From Herbiconiux gentiana (GTDB taxonomy: Bacteria; Actinomycetota; Actinomycetes; Actinomycetales; Microbacteriaceae): DNA of 64,000 bases. Both the position numbers and the translations under genes were made by a program. Position 1 is the stretch's first letter, and each line of letters opens with the position of its first letter. Below the pieces are notes generated by a model. The model had not been told where the DNA came from and did no database searches. It saw nothing but the letters and a program-made list of their open reading frames with translations. Shown in pieces: positions 10,263 to 33,416 of this stretch. The stretch lies in NCBI RefSeq assembly GCF_024978135.1, contig NZ_JANTEZ010000006.1, forward strand, positions 1 to 64,000. The letters run 5' to 3'.

Positions 10263-10278
10263 CCGGACTCCGGTCCGT
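10263..10278. promoter_or_regulatory. Probable TetR operator, CCGGAC-TCCG-GTCCGT
   Basis: An inverted repeat CCGGAC / GTCCG with a 4-bp spacer lies between the FMN reductase and TetR genes. A third half-site, AGTCCGG, lies at 10303-10309, overlapping the end of the -10 hexamer of the TetR gene. The same palindrome in perfect form occurs at 33401-33416 upstream of a nitroreductase. Confidence 0.65.
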
Positions 10279-10299
10279 TTATTCCCGGATGCTCCGTGC

Positions 10300-10305
10300 T
10301 ACAGT
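10300..10305 (+). promoter_or_regulatory. -10 hexamer TACAGT of the TetR gene (leaderless)
   Basis: TACAGT is followed by CCGGGC and ATG 10312, again a 6-nt spacing. The operator half-site AGTCCGG overlaps the end of this hexamer and the start-site region, fitting autorepression. Confidence 0.55.
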
Positions 10306-10311
10306 CCGGGC

Positions 10312-10920
10312 ATGGATCCGATCGGCGCGCCGCCCGGTCCCCTGACACCCACCGTCGGCCTCCGGCCCCCCGAGCGGTCGGACGCGGCCCGCAACCGCGA
10401 GCTGCTGCTCACGACCGCCCGTCGCCTGATCGAGGGCGACGGCATCGAGTCGCTCACGATGGACGGGCTGGCCGCCGCCTGCGGCGTGGGCAAGGGCACG
10501 ATCTTCCGCCGCTTCGGGTCGCGCGCGGGGCTGTTCCAGGCGCTCGTGGACGACTCCGAGCGCAGCTTCCAGGCGGGCTTCCTGAGCGGGCCCCCGCCAC
10601 TCGGGCCCGGGGCGCCGCCGATCGAGCGGCTCGTCGCGTTCGGGCGGGAGCGCCTCAGGACGGCCGCGGGGCAGATCCCGCTGCTGCGCGCCGCCGAGCG
10701 CCCGGCTGCCGAGCGCTACGCGGTGCCGGCGAGGCATCTCGCCGCGGCGCACATCCGGGGCCTGCTGGCGCAGGCCGGGGTCGAGGGCGACGCCCCCGCT
10801 CTCGCGTTCGACCTCCTCGCGATCCTTGACTCGGTGGTCTGGCTTCCCGACGAGGACCTCACGGTGATGCTGCCGCGGATCGCGGACTCGTGGGAGCACA
10901 TCGTTCGCCGCCTGGCCTGA
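10312..10920 (+). CDS. TetR/AcrR family transcriptional regulator
   Basis: The 202-residue protein has a Pro-rich N-terminal tail of about 20 residues. A TetR DNA-binding domain follows at about residues 25-75, with the helix-turn-helix in LTMDGLAAACGVGKGTIFRRFGSRAGLFQAL. The C-terminal ligand-binding half is a divergent all-helical domain. Its location beside the FMN reductase, with a palindrome between them, suggests it represses that gene and itself. A matching site at 33401 suggests the nitroreductase is also a target. The start at 10312 is chosen because TACAGT lies 6 nt before it and the domain begins properly. Confidence 0.88.
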   Translation: MDPIGAPPGPLTPTVGLRPPERSDAARNRELLLTTARRLIEGDGIESLTMDGLAAACGVGKGTIFRRFGSRAGLFQALVDDSERSFQAGFLSGPPPLGPGAPPIERLVAFGRERLRTAAGQIPLLRAAERPAAERYAVPARHLAAAHIRGLLAQAGVEGDAPALAFDLLAILDSVVWLPDEDLTVMLPRIADSWEHIVRRLA

Positions 10921-11001
10921 GCCCGCCACCGCCGACGCCAACGCCGACGCCGCAGCCACCGCCACAGCCACCGCCCCCACCGGCCGCGTCCAACGCGGGT
11001 G

Positions 11002-11007
11002 CAGACT
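11002..11007 (+). promoter_or_regulatory. -10-like hexamer CAGACT (possible leaderless promoter)
   Basis: CAGACT is followed by 6 nt and ATG 11014. The first base departs from TANNNT, so this is weaker than the other examples. The upstream 60 bp is a low-complexity CCGCCA/GACGCC-rich stretch. Confidence 0.4.
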
Positions 11008-11013
11008 GGCCCC

Positions 11014-11826
11014 ATGGCCTCCACTGCCGCCTCCGCCCCCACCGCGACCCTCGACGGCTGGGCGCGCAGCCCCGTCACGGCCGCCGGCGTCACCCACGAC
11101 TGCTACGAGAAGGGCTCGGGCCCGGGCGTGGTGCTCATCCCCGAGCTCCCCGGCCTGACGCCCCAGGTGCTCGGCCTCGCCCAGCACCTCGTCGACGAGG
11201 GGTTCACCGTGGTGGTGCCGTCGCCGTTCGGGGTGCCGGAACGCGCATCCTCGCCCGGCTACGTGCTGAGCACCGTCGCGCGCATCTGCGTCAGCGCCGA
11301 GTTCCGCGCCTTCGCGATCGACGCGAAGCGACCGGTCACGGCCTACCTGCGCGCGGTCGCCGCCGACCTCGCCAGCCGCACTCCGGGAAAAGGGGTCGGT
11401 GTGATCGGCATGTGCTTCACCGGCGGCTTCGCCCTGGCCACCGCGGTGGATGACAGCGTGCTCGCCTCGGTCGTGAGCCAGCCCGCGGCGCCGTTCCCCG
11501 TCGGGCGGGCACGGCAGGCCGACCCGTCGATGTCGCGCGCCGAGCTCGACCGCGTGGTCGAGCGCTCGCGCGAGACCCCGTTCTGCGCCCTCGGCCTGCG
11601 CTTCTCCGAAGACCGCAACGCTCCCCGTGCCCGCTTCGACACCCTGAGCGCCGCGCTCGGCGACCGCTTCGAGGTGATCGAGCTCGATTCCGCGCCCGGC
11701 AATGCGGGCGGCTTCTCCGCGTCGGCGCACTCGGTGCTGACAGGCGAGGTGCGCGAGGTGCCGGGTCATCCGACTCTCGTGGCCCGCGAGCGCGTGGTGG
11801 CCTTCCTGCGGGAGCAGCTGACGTAG
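11014..11826 (+). CDS. Dienelactone hydrolase family protein
   Basis: The 270-residue alpha/beta-hydrolase has the dienelactone-hydrolase nucleophile elbow GMCFTGG with Cys134 as the likely nucleophile, preceded by GVGVIG. A C-terminal His lies in FSASAHSVLTG. The N-terminal region EKGSGPGVVLIPELPGLTP matches the usual strand and oxyanion loop. The natural substrate is unknown; family members open lactones or act as general esterases. An alternative GTG start five codons upstream is less likely. It stands alone between the TetR and gluconokinase genes, both on the same strand. Confidence 0.87.
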   Translation: MASTAASAPTATLDGWARSPVTAAGVTHDCYEKGSGPGVVLIPELPGLTPQVLGLAQHLVDEGFTVVVPSPFGVPERASSPGYVLSTVARICVSAEFRAFAIDAKRPVTAYLRAVAADLASRTPGKGVGVIGMCFTGGFALATAVDDSVLASVVSQPAAPFPVGRARQADPSMSRAELDRVVERSRETPFCALGLRFSEDRNAPRARFDTLSAALGDRFEVIELDSAPGNAGGFSASAHSVLTGEVREVPGHPTLVARERVVAFLREQLT

Positions 11827-11858
11827 GCGGGCCCGCCCGGACATGGTGGACTTGGGGC

Positions 11859-12401
11859 ATGCGCAATCGGGTCGTCTTCACCACCGGGGTCTCGGGATCG
11901 GGCAAGTCGACGATCGGCGTGCTGCTCGCCGACCGGCTCGGCTGGGCCTTCGTCGACGCCGACGACCTGCACCCGGCGGCGAACGTCGAGAAGATGGCGG
12001 CGGGCATCCCGCTCACCGACGACGACCGCTGGCCGTGGCTGCGCACGGTCGGGGCGGCCGCCGCCTCGAGCGTGCAGCGAGCGGACGCGGCCGGCACCGC
12101 GGGCGCCTCGGGCGAGCCCGCCGGCGTCGTGGTCGCGTGCTCGGCCCTGCGCCGCGGCTACCGCGACGTGCTGCGCGAGGAGACCCCGGCCGCGGTGTTC
12201 GTGCAGCTCGTCGGACCGGCCGAGCTGATCGGCGACCGCCTGCGCGCCCGCCGGGATCACTTCATGCCGGCAACCCTACTCGGCTCGCAGCTCGCGACCC
12301 TCGAACCGCTGGGCGCCGACGAGGCCGGCATCGCGGTCGTCGTCTCGGCGGGCCCGGCCACCGTGGTCGAGCAGATCGTCACGGGCCTGGCGCTGACGTA
12401 G
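11859..12401 (+). CDS. gntK: Gluconokinase
   Basis: The 180-residue P-loop kinase phosphorylates D-gluconate to 6-phosphogluconate, feeding the pentose phosphate pathway. The P-loop GVSGSGKST lies at residues 10-18. The family motifs VDADDLHPAANVEKMAAGIPLTDDDRWPWL, ACSALRRGYRDVLR and RRDHFMPATLLGSQLATLEPL follow in the standard order. A short Ala/Gly-rich insertion at about residues 75-88 is unusual but lies in a loop. No gluconate transporter or dehydrogenase is next to it, so gluconate probably enters through a distant gene product. Confidence 0.93.
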   Translation: MRNRVVFTTGVSGSGKSTIGVLLADRLGWAFVDADDLHPAANVEKMAAGIPLTDDDRWPWLRTVGAAAASSVQRADAAGTAGASGEPAGVVVACSALRRGYRDVLREETPAAVFVQLVGPAELIGDRLRARRDHFMPATLLGSQLATLEPLGADEAGIAVVVSAGPATVVEQIVTGLALT

Positions 12402-12422
12402 CCCGCCGCCGGGCGCGTCGGG

Positions 12423-12926
12423 TCAGGCGCGGAGGTCGAGGTGGCGGCGACGGCGGGCGACGCGCGGCACCACCACCCAGAGGGCCAGCACGGCCGCGAG
12501 CACCACCGCGCCCGCGACGAGGCCCGCCGCGCGCCCGAGCACGAAGTCGAAGATCAGCAGCGCCGTGCCCGCGAGCGTGACGGCGACGCCGATCATCGTG
12601 AACTCCAGGATGCGGTCGGTCAGGTGCACGACCCGGTCCTTCGCGCGCATCCGGAACAGAGCCCGGTGCAGGCTCACGGGGGCGAGCCCGAAGACCGTCG
12701 TCAGGATCGAGGCGACGACGAGGCAGAGGTACACGGTGCGCTGGTAGTCGTCGAGGTCGTCGAAGCGCGACTGGAACGCGGCGGCGAGCAGGAAGCCGGT
12801 GAGGATCTGCGTGCCGGTCTGGATGACCCGCAGCTCCTGAAGCATCTCGTTCCAGTTGCGGTCGAGGCGCTCGTTCTCGCTCTCGTCGCGCCCGTCACCG
12901 GGGATCGCGTCGTCGTCGTCACTCAT
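12423..12926 (-). CDS. Four-helix membrane protein, DUF6328-like
   Basis: The 167-residue protein has an acidic N-terminal tail, a conserved-looking stretch NWNEMLQELRVIQTGTQILTGFLL, and four membrane segments at about residues 38-55, 68-90, 113-130 and 137-157. The resemblance to DUF6328 proteins is from recall of the family; no function is known for it. The start at ATG 12926 has TAGCAA six nt upstream, an imperfect version of the -10 pattern seen elsewhere. The phosphoesterase gene lies 12 nt upstream on the same strand, so the pair may be one transcript. Confidence 0.7.
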   Translation of the reverse strand: MSDDDDAIPGDGRDESENERLDRNWNEMLQELRVIQTGTQILTGFLLAAAFQSRFDDLDDYQRTVYLCLVVASILTTVFGLAPVSLHRALFRMRAKDRVVHLTDRILEFTMIGVAVTLAGTALLIFDFVLGRAAGLVAGAVVLAAVLALWVVVPRVARRRRHLDLRA

Positions 12927-12938
12927 ACTCTGTTGCTA

Positions 12939-13445
12939 TCACGATCGCCCCACCGGCACGAGCTCGACGTCGCGCAGCGCCTCGTCGTCGACGACCGCGG
13001 TCATCATCGTGCACACGGGCTGGCGCCGCCGATCGGTCGGCGACCCGGGGTTGAGCAGGCGCAGCCCGCCGGGCGCCGTGCTGTCCCACGGGATGTGGCT
13101 GTGCCCGAACACCAGCACGTCGGTGTCGGGGAAGGCCTGCTCCATCCGCTGCTCGCGCCGCTCGCGCGACCCCGTCTCGTGGATCATCGCGAACCGCACC
13201 CCCTCGAACTCCACCCGCGCGATCTCGGGCAGCCGCGCCCGCAGCCCCGCGCCGTCGTTGTTGCCCCAGACGCCGACCACCCGCGCGGCCCGGGCCTCGA
13301 GCGCGTCGAGCGTGGCCTCGTCGACCCAGTCCCCCGCGTGGAACACCACGTCGGCCTCGTCGACCGCCCGCCAGACCTCGTCGGGCAGCGCCTTGGCCCG
13401 CGTGGGCAGGTGGGTGTCGGCGAGCAGCAGCAGTCGGGTGGGCAT
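12939..13445 (-). CDS. YfcE-type metallophosphoesterase
   Basis: The 168-residue protein has every metal-binding motif of the small calcineurin-like phosphoesterases: D10-x-H12 in LADTHLP, Asp39 in HAGDW, Asn62-Asn63-Asp64 in WGNND, His89 in MIHETG, and GHSH at residues 114-117. Such enzymes (YfcE/MJ0936 type) hydrolyse phosphodiesters such as model substrates or cyclic nucleotides; the true substrate is not evident. It lies just upstream of the DUF6328-like gene on the same strand and is divergent from the coiled-coil protein gene. Confidence 0.9.
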   Translation of the reverse strand: MPTRLLLLADTHLPTRAKALPDEVWRAVDEADVVFHAGDWVDEATLDALEARAARVVGVWGNNDGAGLRARLPEIARVEFEGVRFAMIHETGSRERREQRMEQAFPDTDVLVFGHSHIPWDSTAPGGLRLLNPGSPTDRRRQPVCTMMTAVVDDEALRDVELVPVGRS

Positions 13446-13512
13446 GCCTCCATCGTGGCCCCGCCCGGGCCCTCACCGTAGGCTCGGGGCAGGTTCGACG
13501 GCGGGAGGTCGG

Positions 13513-14496
13513 GTGGATCCGCTCGAGCAGGCGGCGGGGCAGCTGTACGGTGAGGCCCCCTCGGGGTTCATCGCGGCGCGCAACGCCCGAGCCGCGGAGG
13601 CCAAGGCGGGGGGCGACGCCGAGCTGGCGACGCGCATCCGTTCTCTGGCGAAGCCCTCGGTCGCGGCCTGGGCCGTGAACACGCTGGTGCGGCACCGGGC
13701 CTCCGACGTCGAGCCGCTGCTCGACCTGGGCGAGCGGATGCGCGATGCCCAGACCTCGGGCGACCGCGACGCCGTGCGGCAGCTCGGCCGCGAGCGGCAG
13801 CAGCTGCTCGCGACGGCGGCGTCGGCGGCGCGGGCGCTCGGCGACGAGCTCGGGGTGGCGGTGTCGGAAGCCGCCGCCGTCGAGGTGCAGCAGACCCTGC
13901 AGGCGGCGGTGGTCGACCGGGCCGCGGCGGCGGCGGTGCGGAGCGGGCTGCTCGTGCGGACGTTCTCGAGCACGGGGGTGGATCCGGTCGAGCTCGACGG
14001 CGCGGTGGCGGTGGCGTCGGCGGGGCCGGTGCCGGCGGTGGCGTCGAACACGACGGCGTCCTCCGCCTCGCCGGCGGCCACGACCACGGGCTCGACGGCG
14101 GCACGGCGGCCTCCGGCGAAGAAGGACTCCGCCGCCGGGCAACCGCAGGTCTCACGCGAGGAGGCCCGCGAGCGGGCGGCCGCCGAGCGCGCCGAGCGGG
14201 CGCTGGCCACCGCGAAGCGCGAGGCGGAAGAGGCGCGGCAGGACGCCGAGGACGCCCGGGCGGAGCTCGCGACGACGGAGCTGCGCATCCGGGAGAACCG
14301 CGCGCGGCACGAGGAGCTCGCCGAGGAGCAGCAGGCGCTGCGCGAGCGCCTCGACGAGGTGCAGGGCGAACTCACCGAGACCAACGTGACCGCCGCGCGC
14401 CTGCGCAAGGAGCGGGCCGCCGCGGTGCGATCCGCCGAGGCCGCCGACCGCCTGGCCACCCGAGCCCGCACCCGCCTCACCCGGCTCGACGACTGA
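13513..14496 (+). CDS. Ala/Glu/Arg-rich coiled-coil protein, function unknown
   Basis: The GTG start at 13513 is chosen because GGGAGG lies 5 nt upstream and TAGGCT lies at 13479-13484. Upstream in-frame sequence is antisense to the phosphoesterase gene. The 327-residue protein has a helical N-terminal half (1-160) with the conserved-looking segment PSGFIAARNARAAEAKAGGD and SVAAWAVNTLVR. A Ser/Thr/Ala linker follows, then a long coiled coil (about residues 215-325) of Glu/Arg/Ala heptads. No signal peptide or membrane segment is seen. I do not recognise a named family; similar actinobacterial proteins are annotated only as hypothetical. Confidence 0.65.
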   Translation: MDPLEQAAGQLYGEAPSGFIAARNARAAEAKAGGDAELATRIRSLAKPSVAAWAVNTLVRHRASDVEPLLDLGERMRDAQTSGDRDAVRQLGRERQQLLATAASAARALGDELGVAVSEAAAVEVQQTLQAAVVDRAAAAAVRSGLLVRTFSSTGVDPVELDGAVAVASAGPVPAVASNTTASSASPAATTTGSTAARRPPAKKDSAAGQPQVSREEARERAAAERAERALATAKREAEEARQDAEDARAELATTELRIRENRARHEELAEEQQALRERLDEVQGELTETNVTAARLRKERAAAVRSAEAADRLATRARTRLTRLDD

Positions 14497-14513
14497 CGCC
14501 CGGGGAGGCCACC

Positions 14514-15440
14514 TCAGGCCAGCAGCGCCGCCACCGCCACGAGCAGCGGCACCGAGCCGATCGTCGTCACGAGCACCGTGTCGCGCGCCATCACGACCCC
14601 CCGCTGATACCGCGCCGCGAAGTTGTAGATGTTCTGCGCCGTCGGCAGCGACGCGAGCGCCACGACCTCGAACACCTGATGCGCCGGCAGGTGGAATGCG
14701 AACCGCGCCAGAAGATATGCCGTCAGCGGCATGATCACGAGCTTCACCGCGCTGGCCACGATGATCGCCGCCCGTCCCGACCCGGGCGCGAGCGGCTTCT
14801 GCCCCACCAGGGACATGCCGAACGCGATCAGCACGAGCGGCACCGCCGCCCCGCCGATCAGCTCGAACGGCGCCAGCACCGGCGCCGGCACCTCGACCCC
14901 GAACAGCGCGAGCAGCAGCCCCACGAGCGACGCGATGATCATCGGGTTCCGCACCGGCTGCGACAGGATCGACCCCACCGACGCCTTCCCCCGCGTCGCG
15001 ATGTCGAGCACGGTCAGCGTCAACGGCGCCAGCACGATCAGCTGCAGGAGCAGCAGCGGCGCCACGAGCTGCGCACTGCCGAGCACGTAGATCGCCACCG
15101 GCAGCCCGATGTTGTTCGCATTGACGTACCCCGACGACGCCATGCCCACGGCCGTCTCGGCGACCGGCTGCCGGAACCAGATGCGCGACGCGAGCAGGTA
15201 CACCGAGGCCGCCACGGCGACGCTGATCGCCGTCACGAGCAGCGGCGCCGAGAACACCGTCGACGGATGCGACCGCGACAGCACGGTGAACAGCAGAGCG
15301 GGGGTCGCCACGAAGAAGGCGATCCGGTTGAGCACGAGCCGAGCATCCGGTGGCAGGATGCCCAGCCGCTGCACCCCGTAGCCCACCGCGATGACGAACC
15401 CGATGATGCCGAACCCGGTCAGCACCCCCAGCACGCCCAT
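14514..15440 (-). CDS. AEC family transporter (auxin efflux carrier-like)
   Basis: The 308-residue protein has about ten membrane segments in two similar halves, with the AEC-typical crossover sequences SGYVNANNIGLPVAIYVLG and ASLPTAQNIYNFAARYQRG. Bacterial members export or take up organic acids such as malate or malonate; the substrate here cannot be told. The start at ATG 15440 begins with the first membrane segment. An earlier in-frame start would add about 170 Arg-rich residues that are antisense-like and lack a domain. It ends next to the convergent coiled-coil gene. Confidence 0.87.
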   Translation of the reverse strand: MGVLGVLTGFGIIGFVIAVGYGVQRLGILPPDARLVLNRIAFFVATPALLFTVLSRSHPSTVFSAPLLVTAISVAVAASVYLLASRIWFRQPVAETAVGMASSGYVNANNIGLPVAIYVLGSAQLVAPLLLLQLIVLAPLTLTVLDIATRGKASVGSILSQPVRNPMIIASLVGLLLALFGVEVPAPVLAPFELIGGAAVPLVLIAFGMSLVGQKPLAPGSGRAAIIVASAVKLVIMPLTAYLLARFAFHLPAHQVFEVVALASLPTAQNIYNFAARYQRGVVMARDTVLVTTIGSVPLLVAVAALLA

Positions 15441-15460
15441 CGCCTCTGCGTCTCGAGGTC

Positions 15461-17572
15461 TCAGCGCGCGATCGCGTCGGACATCGCCGACGCGATGAAC
15501 GGCTCGAGCGTGAACGCGAAGGTGCGGGTGAGATGGTCGACGTCGCGGTAGACGTTCGCGCCGCCCACGACGGCGGGGCACTCGTCGGCGGTGCAGTAGG
15601 TGTCGCTGAAGTCGAGCAGCGTCACGTCCTGGCCGGCGGCGACGGCGGTGGATGCGGCCGAGGCGATCGGGTCGAAGCTCGCGAGACCGTCCTCCCGGGG
15701 AACCGTGCAGAGCGAGGCGTCCTCGGTGCGCAGGCACTTGTTCGGGTCGTCCTCCCACGCGGGGTTGTCGACCACGGTGACGATCGGGGTGCCTGCGTCG
15801 AGCACGGGGGTCCACGCCTCGACGTAGCCGCCGACCGCCGCGGTCCCGTCGTCGGAGGCGCCGGAGACCGTGCGATCGGTGAGTGCCGCCGTGAACACGG
15901 CGTCGAAGGGCTCGTGCGAGGTCAGTGCCGCGCTGAGCGAGGAGCGCCAGGAGTCGCACGAGACGGCGAAGGCGTCACGGGCGGCGAGCGGGGTCGTCGT
16001 CCACGGGCATCCGCCCTTCAGGTACGTGGTGAGGTGCCAGCCGTTCGTCTCGGCCATCTGGATGAACGGGTCCATCAGCGCGTAGGCGTGGCTGTCGCCG
16101 ATCAGCGCGATCTGCGGCGCGTCGGCGTCGTCGCTGCCGAACTGGCAGTCGCGCACCGTGGCGTCGTTCAGGGTCGAGAGGCAGTCGGGGTGCTCGGGCC
16201 GGTCGGCGTTGCCGAAGCCGGGGCTCGGGATGATCAGGCCGTCGAGCTCAGGGTTGACGCACGGGTCGATCGGGGCGAGCCCATCCGTGGGCCCGGATGC
16301 GGCACCGAAGCACTGCGGCGGATCGGCCAGCGTCTGGGCGAGCTGCGTGGCCTCGGCGTCGTATTTGGGCTGCTGCACGGCCCAGGCGCCCGTGACGAAG
16401 AGCGTCGACACCGCCATGGCCGCCACGACGGCGATCAGCGTGGTGCGCGGGCGCCGGGTGGTGAAGAAGCGCCAGTCGCGCGCCGGGTCCTCGATGAACC
16501 GCTTCGTCAGCCAGGCGAGCACGAAGCAGAACAGGAACAGCGCGATGCGGTTGTAGATGCTGAGGCCCCAGCCCGGGATGTACGGGGCGATCACGATCAG
16601 CGGCCAGTGCCAGAGGTAGAGCGAGTAGGAGATGTCGCCGATGAAGCTGACGGGGCGCCAGCTGAGCACACGGCCGGCGTCCCACGGCTTCTCGCGGTGG
16701 TGCGCCACGATGATCGCCGCGGTGCCGAGCACCGGCAGCGCGGCCATGTAGCCCGGGAACGGCGTCGCGGCCGTGAAGAAGTAGCCGCAGCCGAGCACCA
16801 CGGCGATGCCGCCCCAGCCCAGGATGTTCGACTGCCACGCCCGCGTCGGCCGCAGTCTCGGCAGCAGGGCGAGGGCGCCGCCCACCGCGAACTCCCACAC
16901 CCGGGTGTACGTGACGAAGTAGGCCGCGGCCGGGTCGGTGGCCGTGACGACGACCGAGAGCGCGAAGCTGCCGAGCCCCACGATCGCGAGCACGGCGATC
17001 AGCCCGACCCACTTGCGGCGCTTCAGGACCCGCACCGCGAACACCGAGGCGCCGAGCATCAGTACGGGCCAGAACAGGTAGAACTGCTCCTCGAGCGAGA
17101 GCGACCAGTAGTGCTGCACGAGGCTGGCCTCGTTGGCCGCCGCGAGATAATCCACAGAGTTGAGGGCCAGTACCCAGTTCTCCACATAGAACGTCGACGC
17201 GAGGATCTCGCGCACGTTCTCGGTCAGACTCGACAGCGGCATGATGAACAGCGTCGCGAGGCTCGCGAAGACGAGCACCGTGATGGCGGCCGGAAGGAGG
17301 CGACGGGCCCGCTTGGCGTAGAACGACGGCAGCGCGATGCGGTCGGTGCGCTCGAGCTGGCGGGCGAGCTGCTGCGTGATCAGGAAGCCCGAGATCACGA
17401 AGAACACGTCGACGCCGATGTAGCCGCCGGTGAGACGACCGGGCCAGAAGTGGTAGACCACCACGAGCAGCACGGCGATGGCGCGCAGGCCCTGGATGTG
17501 CGGGAGGAAGTGGTCGGGTCGCTCGGTCGCGGCGCGGTGTCTCGCCGGGGGCGCGGCCTGGTGCTTCTCCAT
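15461..17572 (-). CDS. Membrane O-acyltransferase fused to SGNH domain (OafA-like)
   Basis: The 703-residue protein joins an acyltransferase-3 membrane domain (residues about 22-390, ten or more helices) to an extracytoplasmic SGNH domain (about 470-700). Motifs are HIQGLRAIAVLLVVVYHF with the catalytic His25 and His41 region, then IGDSHAYALMD (SGNH block I) and D677-x-DH680 near the C-terminus. Such OafA/OatA-type proteins pass acetyl groups across the membrane onto cell-wall or surface glycans. A start at 17572 follows TACCAT by 8 nt. It lies 20 nt upstream of the AEC transporter gene on the same strand. Confidence 0.9.
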   Translation of the reverse strand: MEKHQAAPPARHRAATERPDHFLPHIQGLRAIAVLLVVVYHFWPGRLTGGYIGVDVFFVISGFLITQQLARQLERTDRIALPSFYAKRARRLLPAAITVLVFASLATLFIMPLSSLTENVREILASTFYVENWVLALNSVDYLAAANEASLVQHYWSLSLEEQFYLFWPVLMLGASVFAVRVLKRRKWVGLIAVLAIVGLGSFALSVVVTATDPAAAYFVTYTRVWEFAVGGALALLPRLRPTRAWQSNILGWGGIAVVLGCGYFFTAATPFPGYMAALPVLGTAAIIVAHHREKPWDAGRVLSWRPVSFIGDISYSLYLWHWPLIVIAPYIPGWGLSIYNRIALFLFCFVLAWLTKRFIEDPARDWRFFTTRRPRTTLIAVVAAMAVSTLFVTGAWAVQQPKYDAEATQLAQTLADPPQCFGAASGPTDGLAPIDPCVNPELDGLIIPSPGFGNADRPEHPDCLSTLNDATVRDCQFGSDDADAPQIALIGDSHAYALMDPFIQMAETNGWHLTTYLKGGCPWTTTPLAARDAFAVSCDSWRSSLSAALTSHEPFDAVFTAALTDRTVSGASDDGTAAVGGYVEAWTPVLDAGTPIVTVVDNPAWEDDPNKCLRTEDASLCTVPREDGLASFDPIASAASTAVAAGQDVTLLDFSDTYCTADECPAVVGGANVYRDVDHLTRTFAFTLEPFIASAMSDAIAR

Positions 17573-17743
17573 CGGGTCTCATGGTACCCGGGGCGGCGCG
17601 GCGTTCCTGAGTGCGGCATTTGGGGCCGTCGCGGGTTCCTTGCGCGCATCCGCGGCTCTGGCGCAGCTAATCACCGCCGCGGTCAAAGAAGAGCGGATGC
17701 CCTGCGCCTAGGCTCGGGGGAACGACCGATTGGAGGTTCCACC

Positions 17744-20286: not shown

Positions 20287-21042
20287 TTACTGGGCCGCGT
20301 AGCCGCCGTCGACGAGGTGGTAGCTGCCCGAGATGAACGAAGCGGCGTCGCTGGAGAGGAAGGCGACGAGAGAAGCCACCTCCTCGGGCGTGCCCAGCCG
20401 GCCCAGGGCGTGCTTCGCGGCGAGCGCCTCCTGCGCCTCGGCCGACAGGTTGGCGTCGACCAGCGGGGTGTGGATGAAGCCGGGGCCGACCGCGTTGACG
20501 CGCACCTTCTGGGCGCCGTACTCGAGGGCGGCGTTCTTGGTCAGGCCGACGAGTCCGTGCTTCGCGGTGACGTAGGCCGACGACATCGGGATGCCCACCG
20601 AGCCGAGCACCGACGCCATGTTGACGATGGCACCGCCGCCGTTCTTCGCCATGGCCGGCAGCTGCGCCTTGAGGCCGTAGAAGATCGCGTTGAGGTTGAT
20701 CTCGACGACCTTGCGCCAGCTGTCGAGGGAGTAGTCGCCGATGGTGGCGGCCTCGCCGCCGATGCCCGCGTTGTTCACCGCGATGCCGAGCGGCGCGAGC
20801 TTCTCGGCGGCCACGACGCTCGCCTCGGCGAACTCGGGGTCGCTGACGTCGCCGACCAGCACCTCGGCGGTGCCGCCCGCGGCGCGGATCTCGTCGACGA
20901 CCTTCTGGGCCGGCTCCTCACGCACGTCGCTGACCAGCACGGCCGCTCCGTTCTTCGCCAGTTCGAGCGCGACCGCGCGCCCGATGCCCGAGCCGGCTCC
21001 CGTCACGATCGCGGATCGTCCGGCGACGTCGTATGCAGCCAT
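20287..21042 (-). CDS. Short-chain dehydrogenase/reductase (FabG-like)
   Basis: This 251-residue classical SDR has TGAGSGIG at residues 14-21, NNAG at 90-93, and catalytic Ser144, Tyr157 and Lys161 followed by VGPGFIHTPL. It is probably an NAD(P)-dependent 3-oxoacyl, 3-hydroxy or sugar-alcohol dehydrogenase; the substrate is not evident. The start at ATG 21042 has AGGAAGAAGAG upstream. The gene is divergent from a TetR regulator across 93 bp that contains a palindromic operator, so it is probably the regulator's target. Confidence 0.92.
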   Translation of the reverse strand: MAAYDVAGRSAIVTGAGSGIGRAVALELAKNGAAVLVSDVREEPAQKVVDEIRAAGGTAEVLVGDVSDPEFAEASVVAAEKLAPLGIAVNNAGIGGEAATIGDYSLDSWRKVVEINLNAIFYGLKAQLPAMAKNGGGAIVNMASVLGSVGIPMSSAYVTAKHGLVGLTKNAALEYGAQKVRVNAVGPGFIHTPLVDANLSAEAQEALAAKHALGRLGTPEEVASLVAFLSSDAASFISGSYHLVDGGYAAQ

Positions 21043-21082
21043 GGTTCTCTTCTTCCTGTTTCGTTGTCCGTGTGCGTTGTTA

Positions 21083-21102
21083 TATCCAACGTTTGTCGGA
21101 TA
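21083..21102. promoter_or_regulatory. Candidate TetR operator TATCCAAC-GTTT-GTCGGATA
   Basis: An 8-4-8 inverted repeat with one mismatch lies centrally in the SDR-TetR divergent gap. The surrounding gap is unusually AT-rich for this genome (TTATATCC, ATAATTGTATT), as expected for overlapping promoters with a repressor site. Confidence 0.6.
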
Positions 21103-21135
21103 ATTGTATTCCCTTAGGCTTCCTCCGGAGGATCC

Positions 21136-21741
21136 ATGGATGCACGTCACCGACGCAGTCGCGCCAAGCTCGCCGAGGCGGTGCTGCGCCTGGCCTCGGA
21201 GCGCCCGATCGACGAGGTCACGGCCTCGGAGATCGCGTCGGCGGCCGGGGTCAACCGCTCGACGTTCTACGCCCACGCCGCCTCCCCGCTGGCGCTCCTC
21301 GAGAGCGTGCTGCGCGAGGAGCTCGACGCCCTGCGCGACCGGCATCTGGCATCCGTGCCCCGGGCGGTGGCGGCGGAGGCCGTGACCGCGGTGACGCTCG
21401 CCGTGCTGGAGAACATCGAGTCGCACGCCACGATCTACGAGCGCGGTCTGCTCGCCGACGAGCAGGGCGGGCACAGCGGCGAGACCAGCCTGCGCCCCAT
21501 GCTCGCGGCGCACTTCGAGGAGTCGAGCCGTCAGCTGCTGGCCCAGCACGCGCTCTTCCCGAGCACCGAGGACGAAGCGGCCGACCCGCTGCTCGCCACC
21601 ATGGTCGGGCCGTTCGTCGCCAACGGCAGCGTGGGGGCGATCGCGGCGTGGCTCGAGCAGCCCGAGCCGCGCGACCCGGAGGCCTTCCTGCGCAGCTACC
21701 GGCGGCTGGTGCCGTCGTGGTTCCCGCTCGCTCCGCACTGA
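21136..21741 (+). CDS. TetR family transcriptional regulator
   Basis: The 201-residue regulator has an N-terminal TetR helix-turn-helix domain (about residues 8-55) with the recognition region VTASEIASAAGVNRSTFYAHAAS. A helical C-terminal ligand domain follows. The start at 21136 follows TCCGGAGGATCC, a good ribosome-binding site, so this mRNA does have a leader. Being divergent from the SDR gene with an operator between, it most likely represses the SDR gene until a substrate-like ligand binds. The ligand is unknown. Confidence 0.88.
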   Translation: MDARHRRSRAKLAEAVLRLASERPIDEVTASEIASAAGVNRSTFYAHAASPLALLESVLREELDALRDRHLASVPRAVAAEAVTAVTLAVLENIESHATIYERGLLADEQGGHSGETSLRPMLAAHFEESSRQLLAQHALFPSTEDEAADPLLATMVGPFVANGSVGAIAAWLEQPEPRDPEAFLRSYRRLVPSWFPLAPH

Positions 21742-21829: not shown

Positions 21830-21835
21830 GGAGGC

Positions 21836-25683: not shown

Positions 25684-25763
25684 CGTGCCGCCTCCGCCGC
25701 GCGGCGGACCCGTCCGCGCCGAGACCCGTCCCGCGGGGGACGCGCCGCCGTGCATCCGCTCGT

Positions 25764-25769
25764 TAGCGT
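25764..25769 (+). promoter_or_regulatory. -10 hexamer TAGCGT of the ABC exporter operon
   Basis: TAGCGT here is followed by a leader of about 36 nt carrying GGAGG before ATG 25812. It shows the same hexamer used with a normal leader. Confidence 0.5.
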
Positions 25770-25811
25770 GAAGGCAGCGCGGCACCTCGCAGCGCGGGAG
25801 CGGAGGGCAGC

Positions 25812-26708: not shown

Positions 26709-27943
26709 GCGCCACCCGTCCCGCCCCCACCGGCCACGCCGCCCGGCCCGCCCGCGCCACTCGTCCCGCCGCCCTCTCGGCCGTGCAGGGCGTGCGGCTC
26801 GTCGCGGCGCGCGAGGTCTCGATGCGCTTGCGGAGCAAGGCGTTCCTGATCTCCACGGGCATCCTGCTCGTGGTCGTGCTCGGCTCGATCGTCGCGGGCG
26901 GAATCTTCGCGGCGAACGCCGGCGCCCCCAAGGTCGCGGTCGTGCCCCAGACCGCCCCGCTGGTCTCGGCGCTCGGTGACCGCCTCGACGTCACGCAGGC
27001 GGCCACGGTCGCGGATGCCGAGCAGCTCGTGCGCGACGGCGACGTCGAGGCGGCGATCGTGCTGCCCGGCACCGTCGAAGGCGCGACCCCCGCGAGCGGC
27101 ACCGGCACGACCGGCGGCACCGCGACCGGCACGACCGGCACCGGCACGACCCAAACCGGCACCGCCCCCGAGGCCCCCTACGAAGTGCTCGCCCTCAGCG
27201 ACACCCCCACCACCCTCGTCTCCCTGCTCAGCGTCGCCCCTCCGGTGCAGCTGCTCGAGCCGGGCGACTCCGACGGCTTCCTCGCCTACATCGTCGGCAT
27301 CGCGTTCGGTGTCGTGTTCTTCATGGCCGCCGTCACCTTCGGTTCGACCATCGCGCAGAGCGTCGTCGAGGAGAAGCAGACGCGCGTCGTCGAGATCCTG
27401 CTCTCGACGATCAACGCCCGGGAGCTGCTCGCCGGCAAGGTGATCGGCAACAGCCTGCTCGCCTTCGGCCAGACCGCACTGGTCGGCCTGGCCGCCGTGC
27501 TCGGCCTCGCCATCACCGGGCAGTCGGGCCTGCTCGGCCTCCTCGGCCCCGCGATCGCCTGGTTCGTCGTCTTCTTCGTCTTCGGCTTCGTGCTGATCGC
27601 CGCGCTCTACTCGGCGAGCGCCGCCCTCGTCTCCCGCCAGGAGGACGTCGGCTCGGTCACCTCGCCGGTGACCACGCTCGTGATGCTGCCCTACTTCCTC
27701 GTCATCTTCTTCAACTCCAACGAGACGGTGATGGCGGTGATGTCGTACGTGCCGTTCTCGGCCCCGATCGGCATGCCGCTGCGGCTCTTCCTCGGCGACA
27801 CCGAGTGGTGGGAGCCCCTGGTGTCGCTCGTCGTCCTGCTCGCCACCACCGCGGTCGTCGTCGTGATCGGCTCCCGCATCTACGCGAACTCGCTGCTGCG
27901 CACCGGCCCCCGCGTGAAGCTCACCGACGCCCTCAGGGGCTGA
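26705..27943 (+). CDS. ABC transporter permease (NatB/ABC-2 type)
   Basis: The 412-residue permease has a first membrane helix near residue 55 and a large extracytoplasmic loop (about 75-195). Five more helices follow between 195 and 395. Motifs SVVEEKQTRVVEILLSTINARELLAGKVIGNSLLAFGQ are typical of NatB-like ABC-2 exporters. A Gly/Thr repeat (GTGTTGGTATGTTGTGTT) at about residues 130-150 in the outer loop is encoded by a short imperfect GGCACGACC repeat and may vary in length. It works with the ATPase upstream. Confidence 0.9.
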   Translation: MSATRPAPTGHAARPARATRPAALSAVQGVRLVAAREVSMRLRSKAFLISTGILLVVVLGSIVAGGIFAANAGAPKVAVVPQTAPLVSALGDRLDVTQAATVADAEQLVRDGDVEAAIVLPGTVEGATPASGTGTTGGTATGTTGTGTTQTGTAPEAPYEVLALSDTPTTLVSLLSVAPPVQLLEPGDSDGFLAYIVGIAFGVVFFMAAVTFGSTIAQSVVEEKQTRVVEILLSTINARELLAGKVIGNSLLAFGQTALVGLAAVLGLAITGQSGLLGLLGPAIAWFVVFFVFGFVLIAALYSASAALVSRQEDVGSVTSPVTTLVMLPYFLVIFFNSNETVMAVMSYVPFSAPIGMPLRLFLGDTEWWEPLVSLVVLLATTAVVVVIGSRIYANSLLRTGPRVKLTDALRG

Positions 27944-27982
27944 CCCCGAGCATCCGCCCCCTCGCCCGCCCGCACCCGGGCC

Positions 27983-28034
27983 GGGTCGCGCAAAAGTCCC
28001 TTCACCTCGACCCGGAGGGGCTTTTGCGCGACCC
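27983..28034. terminator. Long inverted repeat, probable terminator
   Basis: Two 18-nt arms (27983-28000 and 28017-28034) are complementary except for one G-T pair and enclose a 16-nt loop. Each arm contains an A4 or T4 run inside GCGCAAAAG / CTTTTGCGC. It follows the ABC permease stop by 39 nt and precedes the threonine aldolase promoter. Confidence 0.7.
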
Positions 28035-28072
28035 CGAGCGTTCACGCGGCAGGGCTCGCGCGTGGCGGATGG

Positions 28073-28078
28073 CAGAAT
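28073..28078 (+). promoter_or_regulatory. -10-like hexamer CAGAAT of the threonine aldolase gene
   Basis: CAGAAT is followed by 6 nt and the GTG start at 28085. This fits the leaderless pattern apart from the first base. Confidence 0.45.
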
Positions 28079-28084
28079 CGGTGG

Positions 28085-29146
28085 GTGACCGAGACTCTGC
28101 ACGACCTGGACTACCGCGGCTTCGCCTCCGACAACTACGCCGGGGCGCACCCCGAGGTGCTCGAGGCCATCGCCCAGGCCAACGGCGGCCACCAGGTGGC
28201 CTACGGCGAGGACGTCTACACCGCCGAGCTGCAGAAGGTCATCAGGCGCCACTTCGGTGACCGGTCCGAGGCGTTCCCCGTGTTCAACGGCACCGGCGCG
28301 AACGTCGTCGGCCTGCAGTCGATGCTGCCGCGCTGGGGCGCCGTGGTGTGCTCGACGACCGCGCACATCCACACCGACGAGAACGCCGCCCCCGAGCGCG
28401 TCGCCGGGCTGAAGCTGCTCACCGTGCCCACGCCCGACGGCAAGCTCACCCCCGAGCTGATCGACGTCGAGGCCTGGGGGTGGGGCGACGAGCACCGCGC
28501 CCAGCCGCTGACCGTCTCGATCACGCAGACCACGGAGCTCGGCACGGCCTACACGGCCGCCGAGATCCGGGCGATCAGCGACCACGCCCACTCGCTCGGC
28601 ATGACCGTGCACCTCGACGGCTCGCGCATCTCGAACGCGGCGGCGTCGCTCGGTGTGCCGCTGCGCGAGTTCACGACGGATGCGGGCGTCGACGTGCTCT
28701 CGCTCGGCGGCACCAAGAACGGGCTGCTCTACGGCGAGGCCGTCGTGGTGCTGAACCCCGACGCCGTGGCCGGCATCCCGTTCCTGAGGAAGCTCGACAT
28801 GCAGCTCACCTCGAAGATGCGCTTCGTCTCGGCGCAGCTGATCGCGCTCTACGGCTCGGATCTGTGGCTTCGCTCGGCCTCGCACGCGAACGCCATGGCG
28901 GCGCGGCTGCGGGCGGCCGTCGTCGACCTGCCCGGCGTGACGCTCACGCAGGAGACGCAGTCGAACGCCGTGTTCGCGATCGTGCCGCCGGGCGTGGCCG
29001 ACGCGGTGCGCTCGTCGTACCGGTTCTACGACTGGAACGCGGCCGCGGGCGAGGTGCGGTGGATGTGCGCGTTCGACACCACCGAGGCCGACGTGGACGG
29101 GTTCGCGGCGGCGCTCAGGTCAGCGCTCGCTGCTCACTCCTCGTAG
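28085..29146 (+). CDS. Low-specificity L-threonine aldolase family enzyme
   Basis: The 353-residue PLP enzyme cleaves L-threonine or allo-threonine to glycine and acetaldehyde. The PLP Lys lies in LSLGGTKNGLLYGEA. The N-terminal SDNYAGAHPEVLEAIAQAN and HIHTDENAAPE segments and the DGSRI motif are typical of beta-eliminating lyase/aldolase fold I proteins. GTG start at 28085. The last 13 nt overlap the 3' end of a convergent membrane-protein gene, so the transcripts are complementary there. Confidence 0.92.
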   Translation: MTETLHDLDYRGFASDNYAGAHPEVLEAIAQANGGHQVAYGEDVYTAELQKVIRRHFGDRSEAFPVFNGTGANVVGLQSMLPRWGAVVCSTTAHIHTDENAAPERVAGLKLLTVPTPDGKLTPELIDVEAWGWGDEHRAQPLTVSITQTTELGTAYTAAEIRAISDHAHSLGMTVHLDGSRISNAAASLGVPLREFTTDAGVDVLSLGGTKNGLLYGEAVVVLNPDAVAGIPFLRKLDMQLTSKMRFVSAQLIALYGSDLWLRSASHANAMAARLRAAVVDLPGVTLTQETQSNAVFAIVPPGVADAVRSSYRFYDWNAAAGEVRWMCAFDTTEADVDGFAAALRSALAAHSS

Positions 29147-29712
29147 ACCGAGTCGGGCGTGCATCCGGGTGGCTCGGAGTTGCCGCTGAGCGTGAACTCG
29201 CCGCAGGTCATGAAGTGCGCCTGATTCGCACCGAGCAGGAACGACGTCACCGCGACGAAGGCGACCACGCCGATCACGACGACGCGACGGCGCGGTGACA
29301 CCTCTTCGCCGAACTCGGGCCAGATGATGCGGGCGAGCACCCACACCGTCGTCGGCACCGCGAGCACCGCCACCAGGGCGCCCAGCACCGCCACCACGAG
29401 TGTCGCCACGTCGGACGCCTCGGGCTGCACGACGAAGTTCGCCGCCAGGTAGAGGCTCGGTGCGAGCAGTGCCGCCGCCCGCCACCACCGCCGACGGCCC
29501 CGGCCGAACAGCACCACCACGAAGAACGCCCCGGTCGCCGCCGCCCAGATGGTCAGCAGCTGGTCGAAGAAGAAGTCTCCCCAGGCGCCGAGCGTGAAGG
29601 CGGGCCACCAGACGGCGGCGCACATGCCCACCACGATCACTCCGGCGATGCGGGCGGCCTTGCCGTCGTTCGCCGCTTCGGCGGGGGTTCCGGATGCTCG
29701 CGCCTCAGTCAC
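29134..29712 (-). CDS. Membrane protein of unknown function
   Basis: The 192-residue protein has four to five membrane segments (about residues 22-40, 48-68, 78-95, 97-120 and 140-160). A short C-terminal extracytoplasmic tail contains two Cys (FMTCGEF and PPGCTPD) that could form a disulfide. GTG start at 29712 is chosen over upstream frames because TACCGT lies 6 nt before it; the upstream frame is antisense to the copper ATPase His repeats. I do not recognise a family. It is divergent from copB and converges with the threonine aldolase gene. Confidence 0.6.
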   Translation of the reverse strand: MTEARASGTPAEAANDGKAARIAGVIVVGMCAAVWWPAFTLGAWGDFFFDQLLTIWAAATGAFFVVVLFGRGRRRWWRAAALLAPSLYLAANFVVQPEASDVATLVVAVLGALVAVLAVPTTVWVLARIIWPEFGEEVSPRRRVVVIGVVAFVAVTSFLLGANQAHFMTCGEFTLSGNSEPPGCTPDSVYEE

Positions 29713-29718
29713 GGGCTC

Positions 29719-29724
29719 ACGGTA
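29719..29724 (-). promoter_or_regulatory. -10 hexamer TACCGT of the membrane-protein gene (leaderless)
   Basis: On the minus strand TACCGT is followed by GAGCCC and the GTG start at 29712. The 6-nt spacing decides the start codon. Confidence 0.55.
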
Positions 29725-29762
29725 GCATCGCGCGCCGCCGCCTCGCGCGGGACGTTGCGCGG

Positions 29763-29783
29763 TACCCCCTGGGGGTATAGCGT
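29763..29783 (+). promoter_or_regulatory. CsoR operator overlapping the copB promoter
   Basis: A perfect palindrome TACCCCC-T-GGGGGTA (29763-29777) runs directly into the -10 hexamer TAGCGT (29778-29783), which lies 7 nt before ATG 29791. The shape matches the known G-tract operators of CsoR copper sensors. CsoR bound here would block RNA polymerase, and copper would release it. Confidence 0.85.
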
Positions 29784-29790
29784 GGATGCC

Positions 29791-32061
<2,271 letters not shown>

Positions 32062-32063
32062 CC

Positions 32064-32429
32064 ATGTCGCCCGACGCCACCCCCGCACCCGCCGTCGACA
32101 CCACCACCGCCGGCGAGGGCGACGGAGGCGGTGGTCGCGCCCACGCCCACCACGGCTACATCGCCGACAAGACCGCCTACCTCAAGCGCCTGAAGCGCAT
32201 CGAGGGCCAGGCACGCGGGCTGCAGAACATGGTCGACGACGAGAAGTACTGCATCGACATCCTCACGCAGATCTCGGCGATGACGAGCGCGCTGGAATCG
32301 GTGGCGCTCGGGCTGCTGAACGACCACCTGAACCACTGCGTCGTCGAGGCCGTCGCCGAGGGCGGACCGGTCGCCGAGCAGAAGCTCAAAGAGGCCACCG
32401 ACGCCATCGCGCGCCTCGTGCGGTCCTGA
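32064..32429 (+). CDS. csoR: Copper-sensing repressor CsoR
   Basis: The 121-residue DUF156/CsoR protein has the Cu(I) ligand set Cys63-His88-Cys92 (KYC and HLNHC spacing). The core starts at KTAYLKRLKRIEGQARGLQNMV, which also carries DNA-contacting Arg/Lys residues. A 30-residue N-terminal tail with HAHH may bind extra metal. It is the second gene of the copB operon, 2 nt after copB, with GGGAG overlapping the copB end. The palindrome in front of copB is the expected target, so the operon is autoregulated. Confidence 0.94.
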   Translation: MSPDATPAPAVDTTTAGEGDGGGGRAHAHHGYIADKTAYLKRLKRIEGQARGLQNMVDDEKYCIDILTQISAMTSALESVALGLLNDHLNHCVVEAVAEGGPVAEQKLKEATDAIARLVRS

Positions 32430-32469
32430 CGCGTGGCTCCTCCTCGCCCTCGGCCGCTGGGCGAGCATC

Positions 32470-32495
32470 CTGAACCCACTTCAGGCCGGGTTCAG
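32470..32495. terminator. Short hairpin after csoR
   Basis: Arms CTGAACCC and GGGTTCAG (8 bp, perfect) enclose a 10-nt loop. It lies between csoR and the DedA promoter and could end the copper operon. An operator for the DedA gene is the alternative reading. Confidence 0.45.
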
Positions 32496-32505
32496 CCGCC
32501 CTCAA

Positions 32506-32511
32506 TAGAGT
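32506..32511 (+). promoter_or_regulatory. -10 hexamer TAGAGT of the DedA gene (leaderless)
   Basis: TAGAGT is followed by GAGGGC and ATG 32518, closely matching the arrangement at 6975. Confidence 0.6.
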
Positions 32512-32517
32512 GAGGGC

Positions 32518-33210
32518 ATGAGCCTGGCGCACGCCGACCCACTGACCTCCTCCCTCTCCGCCGCCGATTCCGGCACGGCGAGCCTCGGGCCGATCGGCGA
32601 CTGGGTGGTGGGCCTGATGGAGACGCTGGGCGCCCCCGGCGCCGGCCTCGCCGTGGCGATCGAGAATCTGTTCCCGCCGATCCCGAGCGAGGTCATCCTG
32701 CCGCTGGCGGGCTTCGCGGCCAGCCGCGGCGATCTGAATGTCGTGGCGGCCATCGTCTTCACCACGCTCGGCTCGCTCGTCGGCGCGCTGGCGCTCTACG
32801 GCCTCGGCGCCTGGCTCGGCCGCGAGCGCATGCGCACGATCGCGCGCCACATCCCGCTCGTCGACGTCGACGACGTCGATCGCACCGAGGCGTGGTTCCA
32901 GCGCCACGGCCCGAAGGCGGTGTTCTTCGGGCGCATGCTGCCGCTGTTCCGCAGCTTCATCTCCATCCCGGCGGGGATCGAGCGGATGCACCTGCTCACG
33001 TTCGCCCTGCTCACCACCGCCGGCTCGCTGATCTGGAACACCGTGTTCATCCTCGCGGGGTTCTGGCTGGGCGAGCAGTGGCACGTGGTGGAGCAGTACG
33101 CCGGGATCTTCCAGTACGTGGTGATCGCGGTCGTGGCGGGGGCCGTGATCTGGTTCGTGGTGAAGCGGGTGCGCAAGCACCGCGCGGGCCGCACCGACGG
33201 CCCGATCTGA
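32518..33210 (+). CDS. DedA family membrane protein
   Basis: The 230-residue membrane protein has the DedA/VTT core: re-entrant segment ENLFPPIPSEVILPLAGF, and GRMLPLFRSFISIPAGIERM with the conserved Arg, followed by two C-terminal helices. The family includes lipid scramblases and undecaprenyl-phosphate or phosphatidylethanolamine translocases needed for envelope integrity and proton-motive-force balance. Start at 32518 by the leaderless promoter. Downstream is a 257-bp GC-rich gap before the nitroreductase, with a palindromic operator near its end. Confidence 0.9.
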   Translation: MSLAHADPLTSSLSAADSGTASLGPIGDWVVGLMETLGAPGAGLAVAIENLFPPIPSEVILPLAGFAASRGDLNVVAAIVFTTLGSLVGALALYGLGAWLGRERMRTIARHIPLVDVDDVDRTEAWFQRHGPKAVFFGRMLPLFRSFISIPAGIERMHLLTFALLTTAGSLIWNTVFILAGFWLGEQWHVVEQYAGIFQYVVIAVVAGAVIWFVVKRVRKHRAGRTDGPI

Positions 33211-33400
33211 GTTCGGCTACGGCCTGCGCGAGCCTGGCCGGCCCTCGGCGCGACCCCGGCCGCCCGCCCCCGGCGCGGCCCCGGCCTGCCCGAACCCGGC
33301 GCAAGTCCGACCCGGCCGGCCTGACCCCAGCCCGCACCACCCGGCCGGCCCGCATCGCCCTCGGGAATAGGGCGATCGGATGCCGCGTTCCACCCCTCAT

Positions 33401-33416
33401 CCGGACTGAAGTCCGG
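33401..33416. promoter_or_regulatory. Perfect palindrome CCGGAC-TGAA-GTCCGG, probable TetR operator
   Basis: Six-bp arms with a 4-bp spacer, 51 bp before the nitroreductase start. It matches the imperfect palindrome in the FMN reductase-TetR gap (10263-10278) in 11 of 12 arm positions. Confidence 0.65.

What the first reader, a model, noticed from the sequence alone, without database searches (positions are those of the whole stretch)
10263..33416. One palindromic operator shared by two flavin-reductase-type loci 23 kb apart
CCGGAC-N4-GTCCGG is perfect at 33401-33416 before the nitroreductase. It is nearly perfect at 10263-10278 between the FMN reductase and its TetR gene, with an extra half-site at 10303-10309 on the TetR promoter. 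A single TetR protein may control a two-enzyme quinone/nitro-compound detoxification regulon.
Basis: partly seen in the sequence, partly recalled or inferred. Interest (0 to 1): 0.7.

Follow-up and report, generated by a model that had tools for sequence, protein, structure and literature searches.

The report
Shared TetR operator at two flavoenzymes
In an actinobacterium of the genus Herbiconiux, one repressor protein very probably switches two distant flavin-enzyme genes through the same palindromic DNA site laid over stress-type promoters; the repressor and its first target occur in many other actinobacteria, while the second target seems to have joined in this genus.

Summary
The palindromes are real and the shared-operator idea holds. 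CCGGACTCCGGTCCGT (10263-10278) lies between a ChrR-like FMN reductase and its divergent TetR gene; CCGGACTGAAGTCCGG (33401-33416) precedes a nitroreductase. The window alone cannot show this (9 matches, 20 expected); comparison can. CGGACYNNRGTCCGNTT occurs without mismatch at only these two places in the 3.85-Mb genome. The core precedes the nitroreductase in 13 of 13 Herbiconiux genomes (12 exact, one with a mismatch), and in 0 of 14 outside the genus within one mismatch. Of 80 TetR relatives across Actinomycetes, 75 have the core within one mismatch, 74 of them beside a divergent FMN reductase. Both targets carry SigH/SigR-type promoters (GGAAT-N17/18-GTT): the operator fills the spacer at the FMN reductase and follows the -10 at the nitroreductase. 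In H. daphne (G012) the FMN reductase is gone, yet TetR and the nitroreductase operator remain. Elsewhere the motif precedes pirin, YceI, DoxX, luciferase-like and azoreductase-like genes. The "half-site" at 10303-10309 is better read as the tetR -10 box. Binding, SigH dependence and inducer are untested.

The parts
9633..10208 (-). NADPH-dependent FMN reductase (PF03358), related by sequence to ChrR/YieF chromate/quinone reductases
   Evidence: Pfam 2.7e-37; best PDB sequence hits are chromate reductases 4hs4, 3s2y, 4h6p
10261..10286 (-). Putative SigH/SigR-type promoter of the FMN reductase, GGGAATA-N16-GTT; the spacer is filled by the operator
   Evidence: GGAA-N18-20-GTT around the operator in 63 of 75 relatives
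10261..10280 (.). Operator 1, AACCGGACTCCGGTCCGTTT (core CGGAC-N4-GTCCG at 10264-10277)
10297..10305 (+).
   Evidence: exact in 11 of 16 tetR upstreams, variants in 5
10312..10920 (+). TetR-family repressor (TetR_N PF00440), divergent from the FMN reductase
   Evidence: AlphaFold2 model all-helical, mean pLDDT 89.9; PDB fold matches are TetR-family regulators, moderate TM-scores
33363..33389 (+). Putative SigH/SigR-type promoter of the nitroreductase, GGGAATA-N17-GTT (= GGAAT-N18-GTT)
   Evidence: GGAAT-N17/18-GTT in 13 of 13 Herbiconiux genomes
33399..33418 (.). Operator 2, ATCCGGACTGAAGTCCGGTT (perfect palindrome 33401-33416); core starts 12 nt after the -10 GTT, over the expected start of transcription
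33468..34073 (+). Nitroreductase-family enzyme (PF00881)
   Evidence: Pfam 1.6e-19; best PDB sequence hit 2fre, NAD(P)H-flavin oxidoreductase

Best explanation
The TetR protein encoded at 10312-10920 is a local-plus-distant repressor. As a dimer it binds AANCGGACYNNRGTCCGNTT in the tetR/FMN-reductase intergenic region and the matching site in front of the nitroreductase 23 kb away. At the FMN reductase the operator fills the spacer between a SigH/SigR-type -35 (GGAAT) and -10 (GTT); at the nitroreductase it starts 12 nt after the -10 and would block initiation. Both genes would then need two signals: an active SigH/SigR-type sigma factor (disulfide/electrophile or heat stress) and release of TetR by a ligand, most likely a quinone, nitro or other flavoenzyme substrate bound in the C-terminal domain and not a thiol switch, since no cysteine is conserved. 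The TetR-FMN reductase pair is old and found in many actinomycetes; the nitroreductase was recruited by gain of an operator in Herbiconiux. Shown: operator sequence, positions, conservation and co-occurrence. Inferred: binding, repression, sigma identity, inducer.
For: Zero-mismatch CGGACYNNRGTCCGNTT only at the two loci in the genome. Of 44 CGGACYNNRGTCCG places in 16 Herbiconiux genomes, 24 are at these two loci and 19 of the other 20 lie inside predicted genes. Nitroreductase operator in 13 of 13 Herbiconiux (12 exact), 8-13 nt after GGAAT-N17/18-GTT. Of 80 TetR relatives, 63 have an exact and 12 a one-mismatch core; a divergent FMN reductase was found in 74 of these 75 and in 0 of the 5 without. 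In 10 further loci of the family, core and adjacent FMN reductase go together: 6 with both, 4 with neither within the fetched 3.5 kb. Six of the 8 printed TetR loci without the core have a CGGACTTTACCCCG-like site instead, so the operator varies with the TetR branch. G012 has no close FMN reductase (best E 1.1e-4) but keeps TetR and operator 2. Class scan: 40 places in 28 of 197 genomes against 2 for the reversed control. SigH_actino model above cut-off in this genome; published SigH consensus GGAAT-N18-19-GTT, and nitroreductase-annotated cg3344 listed with a SigH/SigE-type promoter (PMC10012870, passages).
Against: No binding or expression data. The 14-bp core alone is not enriched in genome counts (44 against 54 for the reversed control in 16 genomes). 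TetR presence does not imply the nitroreductase operator: 7 genomes outside the genus with a TetR relative and a nitroreductase have 0 of 8 nitroreductase upstreams within one mismatch, although 5 of the 7 have the core beside their TetR. I looked for a specificity residue: position 59 is Val in 74 of 75 with the core and Leu in 4 of 5 without, but in 6 further loci with the core it is Val in 3, Leu in 2 and Ile in 1, so the link is loose and carries no weight. The FMN-reductase GTT overlaps the operator's own AAC flank, so that -10 is not independent evidence, and its spacing (GGAAT-N17) is one short of the published range. 12 of the 75 relatives lack the GGAA..GTT pair, among them the five Streptomyces loci with the core; in the class scan only 15 of 22 TetR-FMN reductase places have GGAAT within 60 nt.
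Confidence: 0.85

Rival explanations
1. The TetR controls only the FMN reductase and itself; the nitroreductase palindrome is read by another regulator with a similar site.
For: In the sister genus g8 several nitroreductases carry a different palindrome, ATGCG-AA-CGCAT or similar, by the -35, so this gene can fall under other regulators.
Against: The genome has no second close TetR paralogue (next best E 3.2e-7). Operators 1 and 2 agree in core, inner Y..R and outer NTT. G012 has lost operator 1 and the FMN reductase but keeps TetR and operator 2.
Confidence: 0.08
2. The palindrome acts as an RNA hairpin or other non-operator structure in the nitroreductase leader.
For: At the nitroreductase it would lie within or at the very start of the transcript (inferred from the promoter).
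Against: At the FMN reductase it lies between -35 and -10, so it would not be transcribed from that promoter; its position is tied to promoters in both genes. The hairpin itself was not folded.
Confidence: 0.02
3. The sites are chance palindromes in GC-rich DNA.
For: In the window alone the pattern is not over-represented, nor is the 14-mer core by genome count.
Against: Conservation in place: 13 of 13 nitroreductases, 75 of 80 TetR loci, 40 against 2 in the class scan, resampling maximum 1 of 13.
Confidence: 0.01

Closest known systems
NemR of Escherichia coli (TetR family; nemRA-gloA)
   Same: TetR-type repressor of a flavin reductase for reactive electrophiles (recalled; listing and abstract starts seen, e.g. 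PMC3739934)
   Different: NemR senses through cysteine (recalled); here no cysteine is conserved; operator and promoter layout were not compared by a call
MSMEG_6503-NfnB of Mycobacterium smegmatis
   Same: An actinobacterial repressor gene controlling a nitroreductase (PMC3206020, passages; that it is TetR-type is recalled)
   Different: Target adjacent to the regulator (the passages name an intergenic region between them); here the nitroreductase is a distant target of an FMN-reductase-linked TetR. The two TetRs were not compared by sequence
SigH/SigR regulon (Corynebacterium glutamicum SigH)
   Same: -35 GGAAT and -10 GTT promoters at redox genes; nitroreductase-annotated cg3344 is listed as SigH/SigE-controlled, with a GGAAC -35 (PMC10012870, passages)
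   Different: Here a gene-specific TetR operator overlies the promoter, giving a second input
MarR/DUF24-type quinone regulons of Firmicutes (MhqR, YodB/CatR, QsrR)
   Same: Comparable target classes (nitroreductases, azoreductases, DoxX-like CatD; recalled; the MhqR paper PMC6798810 seen as a listing and abstract start)
   Different: Another regulator family (recalled)
CssR of Corynebacterium glutamicum (NCgl1578)
   Same: Actinobacterial TetR stress repressor of its own and a divergent operon (PMC8176726, passages); NCgl1578 is among the fold matches (2o7t, rank 41)

Membership tests
TetR-family repressor | N-terminal TetR_N helix-turn-helix | tested here: met
   PF00440 E 1.5e-13
TetR-family repressor | All-helical TetR fold with C-terminal domain | tested here: met
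   AlphaFold2 mean pLDDT 89.9, nine helices; top PDB matches are TetR-family regulators such as Rv0078 and EthR2, TM-scores of the listed 50 about 0.4-0.67
TetR-family repressor | Palindromic operator in the divergent promoter region of regulator and target | tested here: met
TetR-family repressor | Ligand-released repression | not testable with these tools
   needs gel shift and expression data
SigH/SigR-dependent promoter | -35 GGAAT, spacer 18-19, -10 GTT at the nitroreductase | tested here: met
   This genome: spacer 18. Of 13 Herbiconiux, 11 have spacer 18 and 2 (G003, G008) have 17
SigH/SigR-dependent promoter | Same elements at the FMN reductase of this genome | tested here: inconclusive
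   GGAAT-N17-GTT; the GTT overlaps the operator flank; 63 of 75 relatives have GGAA-N18-20-GTT
SigH/SigR-dependent promoter | A SigH-type sigma factor in the genome | tested here: met
   TIGR02947 304.3 bits, cut-off 251.55
SigH/SigR-dependent promoter | Transcription depends on that sigma factor | not testable with these tools
   needs a sigma deletion or in vitro transcription
NemR-type redox-sensing TetR | Conserved sensing cysteine | tested here: not met
   No column of A2 has Cys in more than 7 of 35 sequences; 10 of the 19 sequences of A1 have none
ChrR/YieF-type flavin reductase | FMN_red domain, closest solved relatives among chromate/quinone reductases | tested here: met
ChrR/YieF-type flavin reductase | Quinone or chromate reduction | not testable with these tools
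   enzyme assay needed

The most novel reading that the evidence does not exclude
This is one branch of a class-wide and apparently undescribed actinomycete regulon: a cysteine-independent TetR sensor of flavoenzyme substrates whose operator is laid over SigH-type stress promoters as a two-input gate. Each lineage recruits its own extra enzymes (nitroreductase in Herbiconiux; pirin, YceI, DoxX, luciferase-like and azoreductase-like genes elsewhere), and a sister TetR branch has moved to a related, altered half-site.
Probability: 0.6. Interest if true: 0.62.

Novelty: new member of a known kind. Interest (0 to 1): 0.5.

Why it matters
It gives a defined operator and a short, testable target list for a widespread actinomycete TetR group that I did not find described (string search; topic searches; open-access library only, listings judged by title and abstract start). 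It shows how a stress-sigma promoter and a specific repressor can be stacked, and how a distant gene can enter a regulon by gaining one 20-bp site while its older promoter stays. Knowing the inducer would tell what these flavin reductases are for.

Tried and rejected
Half-site as a second operator on tetR: rejected; the conserved feature is the -10-like TGCTACAGT. More regulon members in this genome: none at strict consensus; the single other one-mismatch hit lies inside a gene. Thiol-switch sensing: no conserved cysteine. A DNA-specificity residue (Val59): looked convincing in the 80 loci but fails in 3 of 6 further loci with the core; dropped. Ligand from structure: generic TetR fold, no match specific enough to name a ligand. 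Strict coupling of TetR presence and nitroreductase operator across the family: rejected, it is genus-specific in what I saw. Literature: 10 searches; from titles and abstract starts I recognised no listed paper as describing this regulator; three papers were opened for passages only; subscription papers are mostly not held.

Rows left out of counts: of 29 loci I judged 27 (L060 and L061, 27-30% identity, left out). Of the extra target genes, ten were run through Pfam; the other pirin, YceI, rhodanese, azoreductase-like and ClC-like labels are by eye. The 80 loci are the best of 490 and include Herbiconiux genomes also seen under G handles. 'Neither' for 4 loci means within the fetched stretch; one of them (G063) has an FMN reductase about 3.2 kb from its TetR. 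G012 is a draft of 890 contigs, 98% complete, so the absence of its FMN reductase has that limit. Gene calls in scripts are by frame length and GC3, not curated; of the 15 GGGAATA..GTT places, 7 fall inside a frame so called, some of these frames plainly antisense or over-long.

Full report
What is there. The window lies in a 3.85-Mb genome (G000) whose genus mates carry Herbiconiux names (L110 has the contig length of G013:C1, and L120, H. daphne, that of G012:C556). An FMN reductase of the ChrR/YieF type (9633-10208, minus strand) and a TetR gene (10312-10920, plus strand) diverge from an intergenic region that holds AACCGGACTCCGGTCCGTTT (10261-10280). A nitroreductase gene (33468-34073) is preceded by ATCCGGACTGAAGTCCGGTT (33399-33418).

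Chance. Within the window the loose pattern is below expectation, and the 14-bp core by count is not enriched in 16 Herbiconiux genomes (44 against 54 for the reversed control). What is not chance is where the copies lie. Of the 44, 24 sit at these two loci (12 nitroreductase, 12 TetR); of the other 20, 19 are inside predicted genes and one lies between genes in a hairpin-like sequence. With inner Y..R and outer NTT the own genome has the two loci only at zero mismatches. Across 197 genomes of the class the 20-bp motif gives 40 places against 2 for the control.

Conservation at the nitroreductase. In 13 of 13 Herbiconiux genomes with the gene the site is present (12 exact, G006 one mismatch); 0 of 14 nitroreductases outside the genus have it within one mismatch (best 2-4). 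The 13 share GGAAT-N17/18-GTT, and the operator begins 8-13 nt after GTT. GGAA[TC]-N16-20-GTT is found in 8 of those 14 outside and in 7 of 7 further ones without the operator, so the promoter looks older than the operator.

Conservation at the TetR. TetR orthologues are in 15 of 16 Herbiconiux genomes (the exception, G007, is 88% complete). The divergent operator is exact in 12, has one mismatch in 2 (G005, G014) and is lost in G012. Of 80 named relatives (Rhodococcus, Nocardia, Mycobacterium, Streptomyces, Nocardioides, Arthrobacter and others), 63 have an exact core, 12 one mismatch and 5 two; a divergent FMN reductase was found in 74 of the 75 and 0 of the 5. Of 10 further loci in the family, 6 have core and adjacent FMN reductase, 4 have neither in the fetched stretch. 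In 63 of the 75 the operator lies within GGAA-N18-20-GTT read towards the FMN reductase.

Protein-operator link. Of eight TetR loci without the core printed, six have CGGACTTTACCCCG or a close variant at the corresponding place (L141, L146, L151, L172, L206, L207; two, L201 and L203, do not). A candidate specificity residue failed: position 59 is Val in 74 of 75 with the core, but among six more with the core it is Val 3, Leu 2, Ile 1, and Leu is also what most loci without the core have. The link between TetR branch and operator thus rests on adjacency and co-variation of the sites, not on a residue.

Natural experiment. G012 lacks a close FMN reductase in its draft (best E 1.1e-4, 30% identity) and lacks operator 1, yet keeps the TetR gene and an exact operator at its nitroreductase. 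The simplest reading is that the nitroreductase alone is enough to keep the repressor.

Other targets elsewhere. Of the 40 class-wide places, 22 lie beside both TetR and FMN reductase, 3 beside a TetR and another gene (rhodanese-like twice, azoreductase-like once, by eye), and 15 near neither. The gene finder places these 15 between genes. They lie before pirin (five; Pfam for two), YceI (four; Pfam for three), DoxX (two), luciferase-like oxidoreductases (two), an azoreductase-like flavoprotein (one) and a ClC-like gene (one, by eye). In 13 of the 15 a GGAAT element in either orientation lies within 60 nt; among the 22 it is 15. These classes resemble quinone and electrophile regulons of other bacteria (recalled), which is the main ground for the proposed inducer. 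That these extra sites are bound by the TetR of the same genome was not tested; for genomes with only such a site TetR presence was not checked.

Promoter class. The genome has a SigH_actino protein above the curated cut-off. GGGAATA-N16-18-GTT occurs at 15 places against 1 for the reversed control, including before dnaK-like and Clp-ATPase-like genes (by eye). The published SigH consensus is GGAAT-N18-19-GTT (PMC10012870, passages).

Mechanism. TetR dimer on operator 1 would exclude the sigma-RNA polymerase complex from the FMN-reductase promoter; operator 2 would block initiation. Whether tetR is autoregulated is less clear: the distance from operator 1 to its -10 varies between genomes. The sensing step is unknown; the absence of a conserved cysteine favours ligand binding. 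The model is a regular TetR fold without a telling neighbour.

Novelty. The kind of system is known; this regulon, its operator and its lineage-specific recruitment were not found in print in the library searched.

Noticed in passing
L100 (G000:C12:46073-46099 -) and L105 (G000:C13:218739-218764 -): A second shared palindrome, ATGCAAACGCAT, follows GGGAATA..GTT promoters of a second FMN-reductase-like gene and a luciferase-like oxidoreductase (by eye); possibly another two-gene redox regulon.
   Followed up: partly
L045, L210, L211, L212 (sister-genus g8 nitroreductases): ATGCG-AA-CGCAT-like palindromes lie directly before the -35 GGAAT in place of the CGGAC operator, as if this nitroreductase had been wired to another repressor.
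   Followed up: partly
window 21088-21113 (-), between an SDR-like frame (about 20287-21043, -) and a TetR-like frame 21136-21741 (+): Another divergent TetR/oxidoreductase pair with a GGGAATA..GTT promoter and a TATCC..GGATA inverted repeat over it (by eye).
   Followed up: partly
L099 (G000:C10:387931-387957): MarR-like gene divergent from a glyoxalase-like gene (by eye); palindrome GGTTGT-CGAT-ACAACC inside the GGGAATA..GTT spacer.
   Followed up: no
L141, L146, L151, L172, L206, L207: TetR relatives without the CGGAC-N4-GTCCG site carry CGGACTTTACCCCG-type sites instead.
   Followed up: partly
window 50463-50489 (-): The same promoter class lies before a DnaK-like gene (by eye).
   Followed up: no
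L257 (G007:C718:7026-7580 -): The FMN-reductase match in G007 has one stop inside the frame; that draft genome shows no TetR orthologue and no CGGACYNNRGTCCG site.
   Followed up: no
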